Source of the DNA: Streptomyces diastaticus subsp. diastaticus
Lineage (GTDB): Bacteria > Actinomycetota > Actinomycetes > Streptomycetales > Streptomycetaceae
Reading direction: 5' to 3'
Assembly (NCBI RefSeq): GCF_011170125.1
Contig: NZ_BLLN01000005.1
Span: 930,001 to 994,000, forward strand
DNA length: 64,000 nucleotides
Part shown: positions 9,792-16,316 of the stretch, piece by piece
Numbering within the stretch: position 1 is the stretch's first letter
Layout: every line of letters starts with the position of its first letter
Notes under the pieces: generated by a model
The model's database searches: none
What the model was told of the DNA's origin: nothing
What the model saw: the letters and a program-made list of their open reading frames with translations, nothing else
Position numbers and translations under genes: made by a program

Positions 9792-11999
9792 TCAGCTCCC
9801 GGCCAGGGCGGCGAGGACCGTCGCCGTCAGGGCCGCGCGCTCCACCATGCCGTTGACGGAGGTGTTCTCGGAGCGGGCGTGCGCCCCGGAGCCGACCGCC
9901 CCGACACCGTCCAGCACGGGGACGCCCGCGGCGACGACGAAGTTGCCGTCGCTGGCGCCGCCCACCGCCGCCTCGCGCAGGTCGAGGCCGAGCGGCGCCG
10001 CGCACCTGCGGGCGAGGTCCGCCAGCTCCGCGACCGGGGCGGTGCGTTCGAAGACCGGGCGGTTCCAGCCGCCGGAGACCTCGACGGCCGTACGCGGGTC
10101 GACGGGCCGCAGCGCGGCCAGCGCGGCGCCGATCCGCTCCTGCTCGGCGGCGGTGGCCACCCGGACGTCGAGCCGGGCGGTGGCCCGGCCGGCGGTCACG
10201 TTGCTGCGCGTACCGCCCTCGATCACGCCGGTGTTGAGGGAGGTGCCCGCCGCCGGGTCGCGCAGTGCGGCGAGGCGGAGGATCTGGTGGGCCAGTTCCT
10301 CGGTCGCGCTGGCTCCGGCCTCCGGGTCGAGTCCGGCGTGCGCCTCCCGGCCGGTGACGGTGACGGTGAAGAGGCCGACCCCCTTGCGGGCCGTCTTCAC
10401 GGCGCCGTCGGCCGCCGCCTCGAAGACCAGGGCGGCCCGGCTCTCGCGCGCCTCGGCGACGATGGCGTCGCTGGAGGCGAGGCTGCCCGTCTCCTCGTCG
10501 CCGTTGAGCAGGAGGGTGCAGGCCGGGCGGGCCAGCCCGAGCGCGTCCAGCGCCTTCAGGGCCCACACCGCCTGGACCAGTCCCGCCTTCATGTCGAAGA
10601 CGCCGGGGCCGGTGATCCGGTCGCCGTCGCGCCGGAAGGGCCAGTGGGCCAGGGTGCCGGTGGGCCAGACCGTGTCGTAGTGGCCCAGCAGCAGGACGGG
10701 GCGGGCGCCGGTCCCCGGGTAGCGGCGGACCATGAGGTCGCCGGCCTCCGCGCGGGGCCGTATCTCCTCGTCCGCCGGGGCGCCCAGGGCACCGTCGAGC
10801 CAGTGGCGTACCCAGGTGAGGCAGGCGTCGAGCGCTTCGAGGTCGTCGCTGGCACTCTCCTGGGAGGTGTACTCGGCCAGGTCGGCGACCATCTCCTCGC
10901 GGTGGGCCGCCAGCCAGTCCCGTACGGCGGCCGCCTGCTCCGCGCCGGGGGCGGCCACGTCGCCGAACGTGCTCCGGCCGCCGGCGGCCAGCCCGTCCAG
11001 GGCGTCCAGCCGGGCCTCGGTCATCAGGCCGGGGTCGCCTTCCAGCTCGCGCAGCTGGGCGATGACGGCGCGCAGGACCGGGGTGGCCACGCCGTGGCGT
11101 CCGGCCTCGGCGAAGACCTCGGCGTAGTGGGTGGTCACCTCGACCGGGCGGCGGCGGACCGCCAGATCGCGCCAGATGCCGCTGCGGTCCTTGGCCTGGG
11201 TGCGCAGCCAGGCGGTGAGACGGGCGGTGGCGGCACGGCGGGTCTCCTCGCTCGCGTCCCTGAGGAACGCGTGCGGCTCGAAGGCGTCGAACGCCTCCAG
11301 GGTGACGCCGAGCGCGTCGGCCACGGAGAAGACCTCGGCGGCGACGGCCGCCATCGTCGCGGGGTGGCGGTCGATCAGCTCGGCCATGGGGGCGTCGGCC
11401 AGCGCGGTGGCGGCCAGCATGGCGCCGAAGCCCGCCTTGGCCCAGAGGTATCCCTCGACGTTGTCGTCGGCCACGGCGGGCCCCCAGCTCCGCAGGTCGT
11501 CGACGAGGGAGCGGACGCGGTCGGAGACGGGCGCGCCGCGGCGCTCGCCGATCACCAGGGCCCCGGCGCCGCCGTCCATGATCACCCCGGGTTCGACCAC
11601 GTCGGCGAAGATGTTGACGAAGGCGGCGACGGTGCGTCCGGCGCCGATCCGCTGGGCGATCGGTTCCTCGTTGAACCCGTTCTGGAGTGAAACGACCCAG
11701 CCGTCCGGGGCGAGCCGGGGCTCGATCCAGTCGAGGGCGGCGCCGGTGGCCTGGGCCTTGACGGCCAGCAGGACACGGCCGAGGGTGGCGTCGCACTCCT
11801 CGGGGGTGACCGCCTCGACGCGTACGCTCTCTCGGTGCTCGCCCCGGGCGACGGTCAGTCCGTGCGCGCGGACGGCGGCGACGTGGGCGGCGTCGGTGTC
11901 GACGAGCCGGACCCGGTGGCCCGCCCGGGCGAGGCTGAAGGCGAGCGTTCCGCCGATGGCCCCGCCTCCGACCACGGTGTAGATGTCGGTGCTGCTCAT
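9792..11999 (-). CDS. Ketopantoate reductase (PanE/ApbA) fused to M20 metallohydrolase
   Basis: A single 735-residue frame joins two complete-looking enzymes. Residues 1-325 are a PanE/ApbA NAD(P)-dependent 2-hydroxyacid dehydrogenase: Rossmann GGGAIGG (11-17), LLAVKA, SLQNGFN with the substrate-binding Asn near 107, catalytic-type Lys near 188 in WAKAGFG, and the C-terminal helical part ending GVATPVLRAVIAQL. Residues ~350-735 are an M20 hydrolase of the carboxypeptidase G2 type with all expected metal ligands: H440 and D442 (LGHYDTVWP), D469 (GVFDMKAG), E502/E503 (NGDEETGS), a later Glu (FEAAADG) and the terminal GAHARSE His. The start ATG overlaps the SDR stop. Likely role: hydrolyse an amide and act on the released hydroxy- or keto-acid; the substrate is unknown. 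Confidence 0.9.
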   Translation of the reverse strand: MSSTDIYTVVGGGAIGGTLAFSLARAGHRVRLVDTDAAHVAAVRAHGLTVARGEHRESVRVEAVTPEECDATLGRVLLAVKAQATGAALDWIEPRLAPDGWVVSLQNGFNEEPIAQRIGAGRTVAAFVNIFADVVEPGVIMDGGAGALVIGERRGAPVSDRVRSLVDDLRSWGPAVADDNVEGYLWAKAGFGAMLAATALADAPMAELIDRHPATMAAVAAEVFSVADALGVTLEAFDAFEPHAFLRDASEETRRAATARLTAWLRTQAKDRSGIWRDLAVRRRPVEVTTHYAEVFAEAGRHGVATPVLRAVIAQLRELEGDPGLMTEARLDALDGLAAGGRSTFGDVAAPGAEQAAAVRDWLAAHREEMVADLAEYTSQESASDDLEALDACLTWVRHWLDGALGAPADEEIRPRAEAGDLMVRRYPGTGARPVLLLGHYDTVWPTGTLAHWPFRRDGDRITGPGVFDMKAGLVQAVWALKALDALGLARPACTLLLNGDEETGSLASSDAIVAEARESRAALVFEAAADGAVKTARKGVGLFTVTVTGREAHAGLDPEAGASATEELAHQILRLAALRDPAAGTSLNTGVIEGGTRSNVTAGRATARLDVRVATAAEQERIGAALAALRPVDPRTAVEVSGGWNRPVFERTAPVAELADLARRCAAPLGLDLREAAVGGASDGNFVVAAGVPVLDGVGAVGSGAHARSENTSVNGMVERAALTATVLAALAGS

Positions 12000-12835
12000 G
12001 CGGGGTGTCCCTTCGTGGCGTCGGCGGGTGCGGACGTGGCGGGCCGGGCGGGGGCGTCGGCCGGCCCGGTGGCGGGGGGCCAGATGCGGGGCAGGTGGAG
12101 GGCGCCGGTGCCCGAGCCGCCGTCGACGCGCAGGATCTCGCCGGTGATCCAGGAGGCCTCGGGTCCGGCGATCCAGCGGACCGCGCGGGCGATGTCCTCG
12201 GGGCTGCCCGGCCGGCCGAGGGGGTTGGCCCCGATGGCGGCGGCGTACTGCTCGGACACCGGGTTGCAGGCGCTGTCGACCGGGACGAACCCGGGGCTGA
12301 CGGCGTTGACCCGGATGCCGTGGGCGCCCAGTTCGAGGGCGGCGGCCCGGGTCGCCATCTCCAGGGCGGCCTTGGAGCTGGCGTAGGGGCCGCCGCCGGG
12401 ACGGGCGCGCAGGGCCGAGCCGGAGGAGATGTTGACGACCGTGCCGCCCTCACCGCGTGCGGCGGCCAGTCGCGCGTAGGCGGCGGTGGCGAGCACCGGG
12501 GCGCGCAGGTTGACGGCGAAGAGGCGGTCCCACGCCTCGGCGGTCAGCTCGGCCATGTCGAGGGACGGGTAGACGCCGGCCGCGTTGACCAGCACGTCCA
12601 CCGGTCCCCGCGCCGCCCACGCCCGGCGGACCAGTTCTTCCGGGGCGTCGGCGGCGGTCAGGTCGGCGGTGAGCACCCCGGTGGCGGAGGCGGTGGCGGC
12701 GAGGTGGGCGGCGAGGTCGTCGAGCGGGGCGCGGTCGCGGTCGGCCAGGGTCAGGACGGCGCCCTGCGCGGCGAACTGCGCGGCGATCGCCCGGCCGATG
12801 CCGCCGGCCGCGCCGGTGACGAGGACGTGGCGCAT
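11996..12835 (-). CDS. SDR-family oxidoreductase
   Basis: A 279-residue short-chain dehydrogenase/reductase. It has the NAD(P) motif TGAAGGIG (8-15), NAAG, and the catalytic Ser in NISSGSA plus YxxxK in YASSKAA. A proline/alanine-rich tail of about 35 residues after the usual end (VDGGSGTG) is unusual. An Asp at the end of beta2 (TLADRDRA) suggests a preference for NAD. It overlaps the upstream transporter by one base (TGATG) and the downstream fusion gene by four (ATGA), so it is part of a coupled operon, probably oxidising a hydroxyl of the imported compound. Confidence 0.93.
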   Translation of the reverse strand: MRHVLVTGAAGGIGRAIAAQFAAQGAVLTLADRDRAPLDDLAAHLAATASATGVLTADLTAADAPEELVRRAWAARGPVDVLVNAAGVYPSLDMAELTAEAWDRLFAVNLRAPVLATAAYARLAAARGEGGTVVNISSGSALRARPGGGPYASSKAALEMATRAAALELGAHGIRVNAVSPGFVPVDSACNPVSEQYAAAIGANPLGRPGSPEDIARAVRWIAGPEASWITGEILRVDGGSGTGALHLPRIWPPATGPADAPARPATSAPADATKGHPA

Positions 12836-14142
12836 CAGTGGAACTCCTTGTCCTTCGTCTCCGGCATCGTCACGTAGACGAGGAAGGAGATCAGCGACGC
12901 GCCGGCGACGTACAGCCACAACAGGTCGCTGTGACCGCTCCCGTGCATCCAGGTGGTGAGGTACGGGGCGGTGCCGCCGAAGAGGGCGACGGCCAGCGCG
13001 TACGGCAGGGCGATCCCGGTGGCGCGGATCTCGGCGGGGAACTGCTCGGCCATGATGACGGCGCAGTTGGCGGAGTAGCCGAGGATCAGCAGCATCCCGG
13101 TCAGCTGCACCAGGAAGAGGCTGAGGAAACTGTCGTCCAGCAGGTGCAGCAGCGGCCAGGCCAGTACCACGAACCCGCCCGCGAAGGCGGCCATCGTCGG
13201 CTTGCGGCCGAGCCGGTCGGAGAGCAGGCCGACGAAGGGCAGCAGCACGACGAAGACGACCAGGCACAGCGTCTGGGAGAGCAGGGCGGTGCTGAGCGGG
13301 ATGCCGGTGGTGAGATTGGCGTACGTCGGGAGGTAGTTGACCCAGATGTAGTACGTGAGGGTGCCCGCGATGGTGATGCCGGCCACCCGCAGCGCGGCGC
13401 CGGGGTGCTCGACGAACATCGCCTTCAGCGGATTGGAGCGGGTGCGGCCCGAGCCCTGGGCGCGGGTGAAGGAGTCGGTGTCCTCCACCGAGACCCGCAG
13501 CCAGAGGCCGACCAGCCCGAGGAGTCCGCCGATGACGAAGGCGATGCGCCATCCCCAGGCGTGCAGGGTCTCGTCGCTGAGCAGGGAGGTGGTGAGGGTG
13601 CCCAGCAGGGAGGCGATCAGCACGCCGCCGGCGACGGAGACCTGCTGCCAGGACCCGGCGAAGGCGCGGCGTCCCCTGGCGGCGGACTCGACGAGGAAGG
13701 CCGAGGAGGAGCCGAACTCGCCGCCGGCGGAGAAGCCCTGGACCAGCCGGGCGACGAGCAGCACCAGCGGGGCGAGGAACCCGATGGTCTCGTAGCTCGG
13801 GGTCAGGGCGATGACGAAGGCGGCGCCGGCCATCAGCCCGACCGTCAGGGTCATGCCCTTCTTGCGGCCGTGGCGGTCGGCGTAGACACCGAGGACGGCC
13901 GCGCCGACGGGCCGCATGACGAAGCCGACGGCGAAGACGGCCAGCGTGGAGAGGAGAGCGACCGCTTCGTTGCCGGAGGGGAAGAACTCGTCGGCGATGA
14001 TCTTGGCGAAGATCGAGTAGAGGGCCCAGTCGACCCACTCCACGGTGTTGCCTATGGTGCCGGCGACGATGGCCTTGCGCTGCCTGCCGGTCAGTCTGTG
14101 CGCGGTGCCCGGGGCGGGGGCCGTGCGGGGCTCGGTGCTCAT
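12835..14142 (-). CDS. MFS transporter, metabolite:H+ symporter (MHS) type
   Basis: A 435-residue, 12-helix inner-membrane transporter. The N-terminus ...GNTVEWVDWALYSIF and the loop GVYADRHGRKKGM are hallmarks of the MHS group (KgtP, ShiA, ProP, citrate and dicarboxylate carriers), and the mirrored loop LLSDRLGRKPTM separates helices 8 and 9. RLVQGFSAGGEFGSSSAFLVE is the conserved helix 5 region. It probably imports an organic acid or zwitterion degraded by the neighbouring enzymes. ATG overlaps the deacetylase stop (ATGA). Confidence 0.93.
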   Translation of the reverse strand: MSTEPRTAPAPGTAHRLTGRQRKAIVAGTIGNTVEWVDWALYSIFAKIIADEFFPSGNEAVALLSTLAVFAVGFVMRPVGAAVLGVYADRHGRKKGMTLTVGLMAGAAFVIALTPSYETIGFLAPLVLLVARLVQGFSAGGEFGSSSAFLVESAARGRRAFAGSWQQVSVAGGVLIASLLGTLTTSLLSDETLHAWGWRIAFVIGGLLGLVGLWLRVSVEDTDSFTRAQGSGRTRSNPLKAMFVEHPGAALRVAGITIAGTLTYYIWVNYLPTYANLTTGIPLSTALLSQTLCLVVFVVLLPFVGLLSDRLGRKPTMAAFAGGFVVLAWPLLHLLDDSFLSLFLVQLTGMLLILGYSANCAVIMAEQFPAEIRATGIALPYALAVALFGGTAPYLTTWMHGSGHSDLLWLYVAGASLISFLVYVTMPETKDKEFH

Positions 14143-15074
14143 GAGGTGTGCTCCGGGATCTCGTGGGCGGGAGGGGCCGTCCGGACGGCCCGGGCCAGAT
14201 CCGCGTGGGTGGCGTACCAGACGCCGGGGTGGGCGCAGATGTGGTCCAGCAGTTCGCGCAGCACGGTCAGGCGCGAGCGGTGGCCGATGACGTGCGGATG
14301 CAGGGTGAGCTGGAAGACGCCGCCGGAGCGGTAGGCGGCGTCGAACTCGTCCCGCCAGATCTCCAGCACGTCCCGGGGGCGGCTGTGCGGGCGGACGGCG
14401 CCGTAGCGGTCCATGGTGAAGTACGGCGCGTCGTCGCGGATCCAGTCGACCGGGATCTCCACGAGCCCGGTGGGCCGGCCCCCGGCGAGGATCTCGTAGG
14501 GCTCGTCGTCGGCCATGAGCGAGGAGTCGTAGGCGAAGCCGAGGTCGAGGATGGTGTCCAGGGTCGAGTCGGAGAAGTCCCAGGACGGGGTGCGGATGCC
14601 GGTGGGCCGCTCTCCCGTGATCTCGGTGAGGGTCTCCAGCGCCCGGCCCACCAGTTCCTTCTCGTCCTCGGCCGCGAGCAGCGTGTTGCGTTCGTGGATC
14701 CAGCCGTGGACGGCGATCTCGTGGCCGTCGCGGGTGTAGGCCCGGGCTTCCTCGGGGTGCAGCAGCGCGGAGACGGCGGGCATGAAGAAGGTGGCCGGCA
14801 CCCCGAAGCGGGCGAGCAGCGCCAGGACGCGCGGTGCTCCGACCCGGGCCCCGTACTCCCCCTGTGCCAGCAGGCCGGGGCTGGTCTGTCCGTCCCGGAG
14901 CGGGATCGTCTCGTGGTCGGAGTCGAAGGACAGGGCGACGGCGACCCGGGCGCCGTCCGGCCAGCGCTCCGGCCGCAGCGGGCGCCCGGCGCGGACCGCG
15001 TCGACGTGGCGGCGCCAGGTGGTCTCGGGCCACTGCCAGCTCGGGGTGGTGGTCTCCGGATCTGTGGTGGGCAT
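14139..15074 (-). CDS. CE4 polysaccharide-deacetylase-fold amidohydrolase
   Basis: A 311-residue protein of the polysaccharide deacetylase (NodB-like) fold with no signal peptide. Metal-site pieces are visible: SFDSDHE near 50, FFMPAVSA, the EIAVHGWIHERN His pair (about 118-122), TPSWDFS, and QLTLHPHVIGHR near the C-terminus. The YDSSLMADDEPYEI segment is shared with the PgdA/cyclic-imidase branch rather than with secreted chitin deacetylases, so a cytoplasmic cyclic imide, allantoin-like or N-acyl substrate is more likely than a polysaccharide. It is the first gene of the four-gene operon; 197 bp separate it from the regulator. Confidence 0.85.
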   Translation of the reverse strand: MPTTDPETTTPSWQWPETTWRRHVDAVRAGRPLRPERWPDGARVAVALSFDSDHETIPLRDGQTSPGLLAQGEYGARVGAPRVLALLARFGVPATFFMPAVSALLHPEEARAYTRDGHEIAVHGWIHERNTLLAAEDEKELVGRALETLTEITGERPTGIRTPSWDFSDSTLDTILDLGFAYDSSLMADDEPYEILAGGRPTGLVEIPVDWIRDDAPYFTMDRYGAVRPHSRPRDVLEIWRDEFDAAYRSGGVFQLTLHPHVIGHRSRLTVLRELLDHICAHPGVWYATHADLARAVRTAPPAHEIPEHTS

Positions 15075-15271: not shown

Positions 15272-16279
15272 TCAGGCGCCCTGGTCCAGCCGGGTCCAGG
15301 CGCCCTTCAGGGTGGCGAGGTGCACGGTGACGTCCGAGGCGTTGAGCCCCGGCAGGGCACCGATGACCTCACCGGTGTAGCGGAACAGATCGGTGCGGCG
15401 GGGCAGGACCATGTGCCCCACCAGGTTGAACCGGCCGGTGGCGGCGGCCAGGAACTTGGTGCCGGGGTGCCGGGCGAGTTGCCGGCCCGCGGCGTCGAGC
15501 TGGTCCGGCTCGATGGACAGCCAGACCATGAATTCGGCCTGGTATCCGAGGAGCGCGGGCTCGACCAGGGTGCGGAAGTGCAGGACTCCGCGTGCCACGA
15601 GCCGCTCCAGCGCCCGCGAGACGCTGGACTCGCTGCGGTCCAGCCGGCGCGCCAGGGCGCTGACCGGCAGCCTGCCGTCCTGGGCCAGGCCGTCGGCGAC
15701 GGCCTGTTCGAGAGCGGAGAGCGCTTGTGGCGCCCGGTCCCAGTCGTCACGGTCGCACGGTGGGGCGAGCGTGGCGGGCCGCAGGTCGGCGACGGCCTCG
15801 GCGGGCAGCAGGCCGGTGTCCCACATCGCTGCCGAGGTGAAGCTGCGGATGACGGCGACGCACTCGGTGCCGGTGATCAGGTGGGCACCCGGCAGGTCGG
15901 TGAAGAGCAGCCTCATCAGCTCCTCGTTGTCCCGGGCGACGAAGTCGACGATCAGGTCGGCCGTGCCGGTGACGACGGCGAGGAACCGCGTCTCCGGGCA
16001 GGCGGCCAGCAGCTCGGCGAGTTCGAGGCCCTTGCCCGGCTTGGCGTGCACGCGCACCAGCATGGAGGAGCCGCTCCCGGTGCGGTCCAGCTCCACCGCG
16101 CCGACCACGTGGACGAGCCGCCGCTCACGCAGCGCCTGGTAGCGCCGCTGCGCGGTGGTCTCGCTCGCTCCCACCCAGCGGGAGACGGAGTTCCACGAGG
16201 CACGGCCGTTGAGCTGGAGCGCGGCGATGACGCGGCGGTCCAGCTCATCGATCATGCCTGCGTGGGCGCGGGGTCTCAT
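15272..16279 (-). CDS. Tandem-duplicated Lrp/AsnC-family regulator
   Basis: A 335-residue protein, about twice the usual Lrp size. Unit 1 has an AsnC HTH (about 17-65, LDRRVIAALQLNGRASWNSV then TAQRRYQALRERRLV) and a RAM-type ligand domain (about 75-150, VRVHAKPGKGLELAELLA). Unit 2 repeats the plan: HTH at about 190-235 (VSALARRLDRSESSVSRALERL) and RAM at about 240-320. ATG at 16279 is chosen because a predicted promoter places the start point on that A, giving a leaderless mRNA; ATG at 16255 is the alternative. It lies just upstream of, and codirectional with, the operon at 9792-15074 and is its likely regulator. Confidence 0.88.
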   Translation of the reverse strand: MRPRAHAGMIDELDRRVIAALQLNGRASWNSVSRWVGASETTAQRRYQALRERRLVHVVGAVELDRTGSGSSMLVRVHAKPGKGLELAELLAACPETRFLAVVTGTADLIVDFVARDNEELMRLLFTDLPGAHLITGTECVAVIRSFTSAAMWDTGLLPAEAVADLRPATLAPPCDRDDWDRAPQALSALEQAVADGLAQDGRLPVSALARRLDRSESSVSRALERLVARGVLHFRTLVEPALLGYQAEFMVWLSIEPDQLDAAGRQLARHPGTKFLAAATGRFNLVGHMVLPRRTDLFRYTGEVIGALPGLNASDVTVHLATLKGAWTRLDQGA

Positions 16280-16286
16280 GGCACGG

Positions 16287-16316
16287 ACGTTAACCACCGG
16301 CCGGGAAACCCGTCAA
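16287..16316 (-). promoter_or_regulatory. Promoter of the AsnC-type regulator, leaderless
   Basis: Minus-strand TTGACG (16311-16316), an 18-bp spacer, then TAACGT (16287-16292). Seven bases separate the -10 box from the ATG at 16279, so transcription probably begins at the start codon. Confidence 0.6.

What the first reader, a model, noticed from the sequence alone, without database searches (positions are those of the whole stretch)
9792..11999. Ketopantoate-reductase/M20-hydrolase fusion with both active sites apparently intact
Seen: one uninterrupted 735-codon frame contains a full PanE/ApbA fold (GGGAIGG, QNG Asn, catalytic-type Lys near 188) and a full carboxypeptidase G2-type M20 domain with all metal ligands (H440, D469, E502/E503, late His). 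Known: the parts normally occur as separate proteins of ~300 and ~380 residues. Inferred: the fused enzyme hydrolyses an amide and redox-processes the released 2-hydroxy/2-keto acid; pantothenate-like or N-acyl-hydroxyacid substrates are one hypothesis.
Basis: partly seen in the sequence, partly recalled or inferred. Interest (0 to 1): 0.75.

Follow-up and report, generated by a model that had tools for sequence, protein, structure and literature searches.

The report
Dehydrogenase–amidohydrolase fusion in Streptomyces operon
A single Streptomyces gene joins a ketopantoate-reductase-like dehydrogenase to a carboxypeptidase-G2-like amide hydrolase; the join is genuine and conserved, sits in what looks like a breakdown operon, and may oxidise a hydroxy acid that the other half releases from an amino acid.

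Summary
One uninterrupted 735-codon frame (minus strand, 9792-11999) carries a PanE/ApbA dehydrogenase and a CPG2-type M20 hydrolase with the expected catalytic and metal residues. The fusion is not an artefact: of 46 named loci with both domains (among the best 76 fetched), 40 are clean single frames, 1 is fused but frame-shifted, 5 are adjacent genes. In the midpoint-rooted M20 tree the 42 fused rows form one clade (99/93). Measured linkers run 14 to 270 residues: a tether rather than a rigid channel. The gene ends a tightly overlapping operon: Lrp/AsnC regulator, HpPgdA/PuuE-like amidohydrolase, MHS-like transporter, SDR, fusion. The dehydrogenase half is probably not a ketopantoate reductase: general catalytic residues stay, but four recalled ketopantoate contacts are replaced, and two invariant Asp end the second strand, as in NAD enzymes. 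Its nearest relatives outside the operon are fused to an unrelated amidase (PF01425), 6 of 6 examined. Best reading: a catabolic pair whose hydrolase frees a 2-hydroxy acid from an amino acid and whose NAD-type dehydrogenase oxidises it. The substrate is unknown. Papers listed by my searches of one open-access library did not describe the fusion.

The parts
9792..11999 (-). ApbA::M20 fusion gene, 735 aa (ApbA 8-320; linker about 336-360; M20 about 361-735)
   Evidence: clean fusion in 40 of 46 named loci with both domains
10995..11999 (-). PanE/ApbA-type dehydrogenase half; N107, K188, E287 kept; D34 and D36 at the end of the second strand; G192, A196, M205, G274 where E. coli PanE has N180, N184, N194, S244
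9792..10949 (-). CPG2-type M20 hydrolase half; H440, D442, D469, E502, E503, E527, R647, H707
11996..12835 (-). SDR-family dehydrogenase, 279 aa; its stop overlaps the fusion start (ATGA)
12835..14142 (-). MFS transporter nearest the MHS (metabolite:H+ symport) family, below that model's cut-off; overlaps its neighbours (ATGA with the deacetylase, TGATG with the SDR)
   Evidence: start taken at the overlapping ATG seen, while the scans used 12835-14166
14139..15074 (-). Polysaccharide-deacetylase-fold amidohydrolase of the HpPgdA/PuuE kind, 311 aa; D51, D53, H123, H127, H259 near-invariant in 49 aligned rows
15272..16297 (-). Lrp/AsnC-type regulator with two HTH stretches, 341 aa, next gene upstream on the same strand; putative regulator of the operon

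Best explanation
The gene encodes a tethered two-step catabolic enzyme. The transporter imports an acidic, amide-containing compound; the HpPgdA/PuuE-like protein may open a ring or remove a group; the M20 half cleaves an N-acyl-amino-acid amide next to a free carboxylate; the ApbA half oxidises the released (probably D-) 2-hydroxy acid to a 2-oxo acid with NAD+, as KPR-family D-mandelate dehydrogenases do; the SDR handles another hydroxyl or keto group. The flexible linker only keeps the two enzymes together and in equal amount. Shown: fusion, operon, one fused clade in the M20 tree, kept catalytic residues, altered ketopantoate pocket. Inferred: cofactor, reaction order, substrate class and the role of each neighbour.
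For: Overlapping operon junctions; of 46 named loci with both domains 35 hold all six genes and 9 more hold all but a close AsnC. Unfused ApbA and M20 neighbours in the same operon elsewhere. Of 6 class-sample genomes with a close deacetylase-like match, 5 also have the ApbA half, at the same place. Kept N107, K188, E287, NAD-type D34/D36, lost ketopantoate pocket. CPG2-type M20 with all ligands and R647, aligned to the CPG2 Arg that by recall binds the amino-acid carboxylate. D-mandelate dehydrogenases, one solved with NADH, among the fold matches; [quoted passage not shown] Related dehydrogenases fused to an unrelated amidase, 6 of 6 examined. Deacetylase-like gene + M20 with no ApbA match at E <= 1e-15 in 3 genomes, and ApbA operon and M20 on different contigs in A. 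sacchari: the hydrolase can act without the dehydrogenase, as expected if it acts first. More distant M20 kin sit beside MenC/N-acylamino-acid-racemase-like enzymes or AbgT-type transporters.
Against: No substrate or activity is known. An acidic second-strand end predicts NAD but does not prove it. The deacetylase-like gene and the SDR have no assigned step. Three genomes keep the deacetylase-like gene and M20 without ApbA, so the oxidation is not always needed; G544 has the deacetylase-like gene without the other operon genes within the 17.5 kb read. M20s of five unfused operons (L083, L087, L091, L134, L136) lie in another clade than the fused ones, and that of L135 lies with distant AbgT-linked M20s (long-branch warning), so the M20 partner may have been exchanged. 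The ApbA tree leaves the two unfused Saccharopolyspora rows in an unresolved 17-row group (99/99) with all its fused rows, so later fission there is not excluded. Racemase and AbgT neighbours belong to more distant M20 relatives. No plasmid record covered 80% of the query.
Confidence: 0.5

Rival explanations
1. Pantothenate breakdown: the M20 half splits pantothenate into pantoate and beta-alanine, and the ApbA half interconverts pantoate and ketopantoate.
For: The ApbA half passes the NCBIfam apbA_panE cut-off (155.7 against 141.35 bits), and pantothenate is an acid amide. The next strongest ApbA match of the genome, L002, also lacks the counterparts of N180, N184 and N194, though it keeps the Ser, so no obvious canonical PanE was seen in this search.
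Against: All four recalled ketopantoate contacts are replaced in 51 of 52 rows, one gapped; patchy, 10 of 199 genomes of the genus, a lower bound; no need for the deacetylase-like gene; the CPG2-type Arg suggests an alpha-amino-acid carboxylate (recalled role). PMC4353338 (passages) says IlvC covers for a missing panE in C. glutamicum, so a missing PanE need not mean this protein fills in.
Confidence: 0.07
2. Imide or ureide catabolism: the HpPgdA/PuuE-like enzyme opens a cyclic imide or hydantoin-like ring, the M20 half cleaves the resulting amide, and the dehydrogenases oxidise the hydroxy-dicarboxylic acid, parallel to the fungal nicotinate route (SDR HxnW, cyclic imidase HxnM, amide hydrolase HxnN).
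For: The protein is nearest to 3rxz, HpPgdA and PuuE; PMC9304392 proposes that HpPgdA-like HxnM opens 3-hydroxypiperidine-2,6-dione, with an SDR before and an amide hydrolase after it; the deacetylase-like gene stays with M20 in 3 genomes that lack an ApbA match; among the transporter's best models is a tricarballylate symporter, below its cut-off, beside shikimate and betaine/proline ones.
Against: HxnN releases ammonia from alpha-hydroxyglutaramate, whereas a CPG2-type M20 would be expected to want an amino-acid carboxylate; the substrate of HpPgdA is unknown and it was inactive on allantoin; the allantoinase model TIGR03212 is far below its cut-off.
Confidence: 0.25
3. The dehydrogenase acts first, oxidising an N-acyl hydroxy compound to a keto amide that the M20 half then splits.
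For: Domain order; same fusion logic with an unrelated amidase.
Against: The deacetylase-like/M20 pair exists without an ApbA match in 3 genomes.
Confidence: 0.15
4. Genetic accident: a lost stop joined two neighbouring operon genes, with no benefit from the tether.
For: Linker length 14-270 aa, rich in Ala, Pro and Gly, and apparently near zero in L070; pTM 0.60; unfused neighbours occur elsewhere.
Against: Kept across 40 clean fused loci; a second fusion of the same dehydrogenase branch to a hydrolase.
Confidence: 0.35

Closest known systems
Carboxypeptidase G2 (M20, 1cg2)
   Same: Same fold and aligned metal and catalytic residues; best sequence and fold match
   Different: About 28% identity; fused behind a dehydrogenase; glutamate/folate specificity not tested
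Ketopantoate reductase PanE/ApbA (EC 1.1.1.169)
   Same: Fold, GxGxxG, and Lys/Glu/Asn equivalents
   Different: Recalled ketopantoate-contact residues replaced; Asp pair instead of the Arg seen in the two aligned solved KPRs; fused to a hydrolase
KPR-family D-mandelate / D-2-hydroxyacid dehydrogenases (3wfi, 5x20, 8wl1)
   Same: Among the sequence and fold matches; NADH in 5x20; such enzymes misannotated as PanE according to a PMC4353338 passage
   Different: About 20-23% identity; separate entries, no fusion; residue-by-residue pocket comparison not made
ApbA::Amidase (PF01425) fusions in L139, L158-L162
   Same: Nearest outside relatives of the dehydrogenase half (38-47% identity), same D34/D36, N107, K188, G192, G274, E287 pattern
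   Different: Unrelated hydrolase; F131, A196, M205 and H291 differ; beside peptide-catabolism-type genes rather than this operon
Fungal hxn nicotinate route (HxnW SDR, HxnM cyclic imidase, HxnN amide hydrolase; PMC9304392)
   Same: Combination of SDR, HpPgdA-like hydrolase and amide hydrolase
   Different: No ApbA or M20 protein in the passages seen; other kingdom

Membership tests
PanE/ApbA ketopantoate reductase | Sequence family match | tested here: met
   PF02558, PF08546 and TIGR00745 above cut-off
PanE/ApbA ketopantoate reductase | Catalytic Lys and Glu, Asn of the QNG/HNG motif (roles recalled) | tested here: met
   K188 and E287 in 51 of 52 rows (1 gapped), N107 in 52 of 52
PanE/ApbA ketopantoate reductase | Ketopantoate-contact Asn180, Asn184, Asn194, Ser244 (E. 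coli; roles recalled) | tested here: not met
   G, A/S/T, M, G in 51 of 52 rows, 1 gapped
PanE/ApbA ketopantoate reductase | Arg at the end of the second strand, NADPH contact (role recalled) | tested here: not met
   D34 and D36 in 52 of 52 rows; gap placement against E. coli there is uncertain; Arg in the two solved KPRs shown
PanE/ApbA ketopantoate reductase | Ketopantoate reduction | not testable with these tools
   needs an assay
M20 carboxypeptidase-G2-type hydrolase | Two-metal ligand set and catalytic Glu (CPG2 roles recalled) | tested here: met
   H440, D469, E502, E503, E527, H707 in 83 of 83 rows, aligned to CPG2
M20 carboxypeptidase-G2-type hydrolase | Fold and dimerisation domain | tested here: met
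   PF07687; 1cg2 TMt 0.85
M20 carboxypeptidase-G2-type hydrolase | C-terminal Glu or folate cleavage | not testable with these tools
   needs an assay
KPR-type D-2-hydroxyacid dehydrogenase | NAD(H)-type cofactor site | tested here: inconclusive
   invariant D34/D36 fit NAD; not compared residue by residue with 5x20
KPR-type D-2-hydroxyacid dehydrogenase | Oxidation of D-2-hydroxy acids | not testable with these tools
   needs an assay
PuuE allantoinase / cyclic imidase (neighbour gene) | Family model match | tested here: not met
   allantoinase model TIGR03212 104 bits against cut-off 424.6; nearer 3rxz and HpPgdA by sequence; no cyclic-imidase model appeared among the matches

The most novel reading that the evidence does not exclude
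A dehydrogenase lineage, distinct from ketopantoate reductase, has become specialised to work with amide hydrolysis and has been welded at least twice to unrelated amide hydrolases (M20 in Streptomyces, amidase-signature in other actinobacteria), defining an undescribed class of bifunctional hydrolase-dehydrogenases that degrade N-(hydroxyacyl) amino-acid or peptide-like natural products.
Probability: 0.4. Interest if true: 0.65.

Novelty: new variant of a known kind. Interest (0 to 1): 0.5.

Why it matters
Two enzymes usually annotated apart (a '2-dehydropantoate 2-reductase' and an 'M20 peptidase') are one protein in some 40 Streptomyces genomes, and the PanE label is probably wrong. The same dehydrogenase branch joined to two unrelated amide hydrolases is strong functional-linkage evidence and gives a concrete, testable prediction about the substrate class of a catabolic-looking operon for which my searches found no description.

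Tried and rejected
One search translated the wrong strand. One search used a wrong reference (an out-of-frame stretch of the M20 side) and returned 0 hits; it is no evidence and was replaced. Sequencing error or frameshift: rejected by conservation. Pantothenate synthesis or breakdown: thought unlikely. Rigid channelling between domains: not supported; linker 14-270 aa over the 37 of 40 clean fused loci that the pattern could measure. L055, L070 and L076 were not measured, and L070 seems to lack the linker and the start of the M20 half. In the M20 tree 79 of 83 rows were used; I dropped L137, L138, L140 and L141. The ApbA tree used only 14 fused loci plus the window; its two outgroups have extreme branches and it does not settle fusion against fission in Saccharopolyspora. 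ApbA::amidase fusions were not found in the other 7 of 8 genomes searched in the order of G290, but five more turned up in the class search. One search kept the best 80 of 328 matching stretches (76 loci), so its counts favour full-length relatives; searches scored at most two to five candidates per genome, so absences there are not firm. The M20 half alone is common: 123 of 394 class genomes matched the query at 1e-60, mostly by M20. Gene neighbours were called by a home-made G+C-based or longest-frame caller that misses genes and calls wrong-strand frames; labels rest on BLAST, on Pfam/NCBIfam where a call is named, and otherwise on the look of the sequence. Literature: searches are ten searches of one open-access library; aimed at the fusion and listed 5 of 5, 1 of 1, 0 of 0 and 8 of 31 papers, none on it by title and start of abstract. 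That is not proof of absence in print. PMC9304392: abstract, section 12 and passages seen; PMC3084791 and PMC4353338: passages only.

Full report
Observation. The reported span holds one 735-codon frame on the minus strand, uninterrupted, starting ATG at 11999. Pfam places ApbA at 8-154, ApbA_C at 180-320, Peptidase_M20 at 436-729 and its dimerisation domain at 536-629. The best solved relatives by sequence are carboxypeptidase G2 for the C-terminal half (E 5.8e-36) and 3hwr, a KPR-family protein, for the N-terminal half (E 3.9e-17). AlphaFold2 gives mean pLDDT 91.6 and pTM 0.60. Foldseek ranks 1cg2 first (TM 0.85 by target) and finds 3hwr (0.87) and D-mandelate dehydrogenases.

The fusion is real and conserved. 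The window lies in a 7.08-Mb genome, a Streptomyces judging by its nearest named relative, S. albidoflavus at 93%. One search kept the best 80 of 328 matching stretches, 76 loci; 46 of these hold both domains: 40 as clean single frames, 1 (L072) fused but with the ApbA part in two frames, and 5 as adjacent separate genes (L078, L081 Saccharopolyspora; L083, L091 Amycolatopsis; L087 Streptomyces sp. 8L). In a 79-row, midpoint-rooted M20 tree the 42 fused rows form one clade (99/93) next to unfused Saccharopolyspora and stand-alone Sciscionella and S. rosea rows. The M20s of L083, L087, L091, L134 and L136 lie in another clade, and that of L135 lies with distant AbgT-linked ones, a join flagged as a possible long-branch effect. 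One fusion event fits this best. The smaller ApbA tree does not resolve the point: the two unfused Saccharopolyspora rows pair (92/85) inside an unresolved 17-row group (99/99) that holds all its fused rows. The linker measures 14 to 270 residues over 37 of 40 clean loci and is rich in Ala, Pro and Gly; L070, not measured, seems to have almost none. The family is accessory: the ApbA half was matched in 10 of 199 genomes of the genus at 1e-30, two of them (G149, G150) in broken frames or places, and in 11 of 394 genomes of the class sample at 1e-40; both are lower bounds. No plasmid record covers 80% of the protein.

Operon. Upstream on the same strand lie an SDR (11996-12835), an MFS transporter nearest the MHS family though below that model's cut-off, a polysaccharide-deacetylase-fold protein (14139-15074) and an Lrp/AsnC regulator (15272-16297). 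The three junctions from deacetylase to fusion overlap (ATGA, TGATG, ATGA). Of the 46 named loci with both domains, 35 have all six genes (over 150 bits and 40% identity), 9 lack only a close AsnC match, and 2 (L063 near a contig end, L072) have only the fusion. In the class sample 6 of 394 genomes have a close deacetylase-like match and 5 of them have the ApbA half at the same place; the sixth, G544, has it alone in the 17.5 kb read. Sciscionella (two genomes) and Saccharopolyspora rosea keep the deacetylase-like gene next to M20 with no ApbA match at 1e-15. Amycolatopsis sacchari has the operon with ApbA on one contig and a 62% M20 beside a second copy of the transporter on another.

Dehydrogenase half. 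Against E. coli PanE, N98, K176, E256 and K72 have counterparts in 51-52 of 52 rows, but N180, N184, N194 and S244 are G, A/S/T, M and G; the contact roles of these residues are recalled, not from a call. D34 and D36 are invariant, 52 of 52, where the two solved KPRs shown carry an Arg; this fits NAD but is inference. [quoted passage not shown] faecalis and L. lactis were misannotated as KPR. L002, the next strongest ApbA match of the genome, also lacks the three Asn but keeps the Ser.

Hydrolase half. H440, D442, D469, E502, E503, E527, R647 and H707 are present in 83 of 83 rows and align with CPG2; CPG2 roles, such as the carboxylate-binding Arg, are recalled. More distant M20 relatives lie beside MenC/N-acylamino-acid-racemase-like enzymes (six loci by clustering, one scanned, TIGR01928) or AbgT-type transporters (six loci by clustering, two scanned), in keeping with N-acyl amino acids or related amides as substrates.

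A second fusion. The nearest relatives of the dehydrogenase half outside this operon (38-47% identity) lie in frames of about 710-780 aa. Six of six examined are ApbA fused to an amidase-signature hydrolase (PF01425), which is unrelated to M20. They share D34/D36, N107, K188, G192, G274 and E287 with the window protein and differ at 131, 196, 205 and 291. Neighbours scanned in one or more of these loci: M55 D-aminopeptidase (L139, L162), asparaginase-2 family (L139), M20 (L139), M19 dipeptidase (L139, L161), methylaspartate ammonia-lyase, AstE/AspA and HpcH/HpaI (L161); SDRs by BLAST in five of the six, and peptide-type ABC transporters by the look of the sequence only.

Interpretation. Association of one dehydrogenase branch with two unrelated amide hydrolases, plus the operon, is best explained by a catabolic pair in which an amide of a 2-hydroxy acid is hydrolysed and the acid oxidised with NAD. 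The deacetylase-like neighbour is nearest 3rxz, HpPgdA and PuuE. In Aspergillus an HpPgdA-like enzyme is proposed to open 3-hydroxypiperidine-2,6-dione, with an SDR before it and an amide hydrolase after it (PMC9304392, section 12 and passages), so imide catabolism is a serious alternative. The substrate remains unknown. I file the protein as a new variant built of known parts: a member of the M20/CPG2 family by each sequence feature tested, and a KPR-superfamily dehydrogenase that fails the ketopantoate-pocket test.

Noticed in passing
L139:8184-10307, L158:8505-10829, L159:6907-9048, L160:9040-11208, L161:2707-4866, L162:7592-9742: ApbA::Amidase (PF01425) fusions of about 710-720 aa beside peptide-catabolism-type genes, including methylaspartate ammonia-lyase, M55 D-aminopeptidase and asparaginase-2 proteins; five of the six genomes are 1.4-2.2 Mb (one of them 77% complete). 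A role in breaking down (methyl)aspartyl or D-residue peptides, such as cyanobacterial ones, is only a guess.
   Followed up: partly
L072:10001-12135: S. niphimycinicus copy has the ApbA part in two frames and lacks the other operon genes in the locus: apparently decaying, or an assembly error.
   Followed up: no
L085:10972-11762: Linker of about 270 residues made of near-repeats between ApbA and M20 in Streptomyces sp. HNM0575.
   Followed up: no
L094:11146-12252, L086:11158-12264, L090:8825-9937, L093:5702-6865: MenC/N-acylamino-acid-racemase-like enzymes (L094 scanned, the others by clustering) near more distant stand-alone M20 relatives; in L086 and L094 also an MHS-like transporter and a divergent AsnC-type regulator: possibly a separate N-acyl amino acid route.
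   Followed up: partly
window 15272-16297: The Lrp/AsnC regulator has two HTH stretches in one 341-aa chain, apparently a tandem duplication.
   Followed up: no
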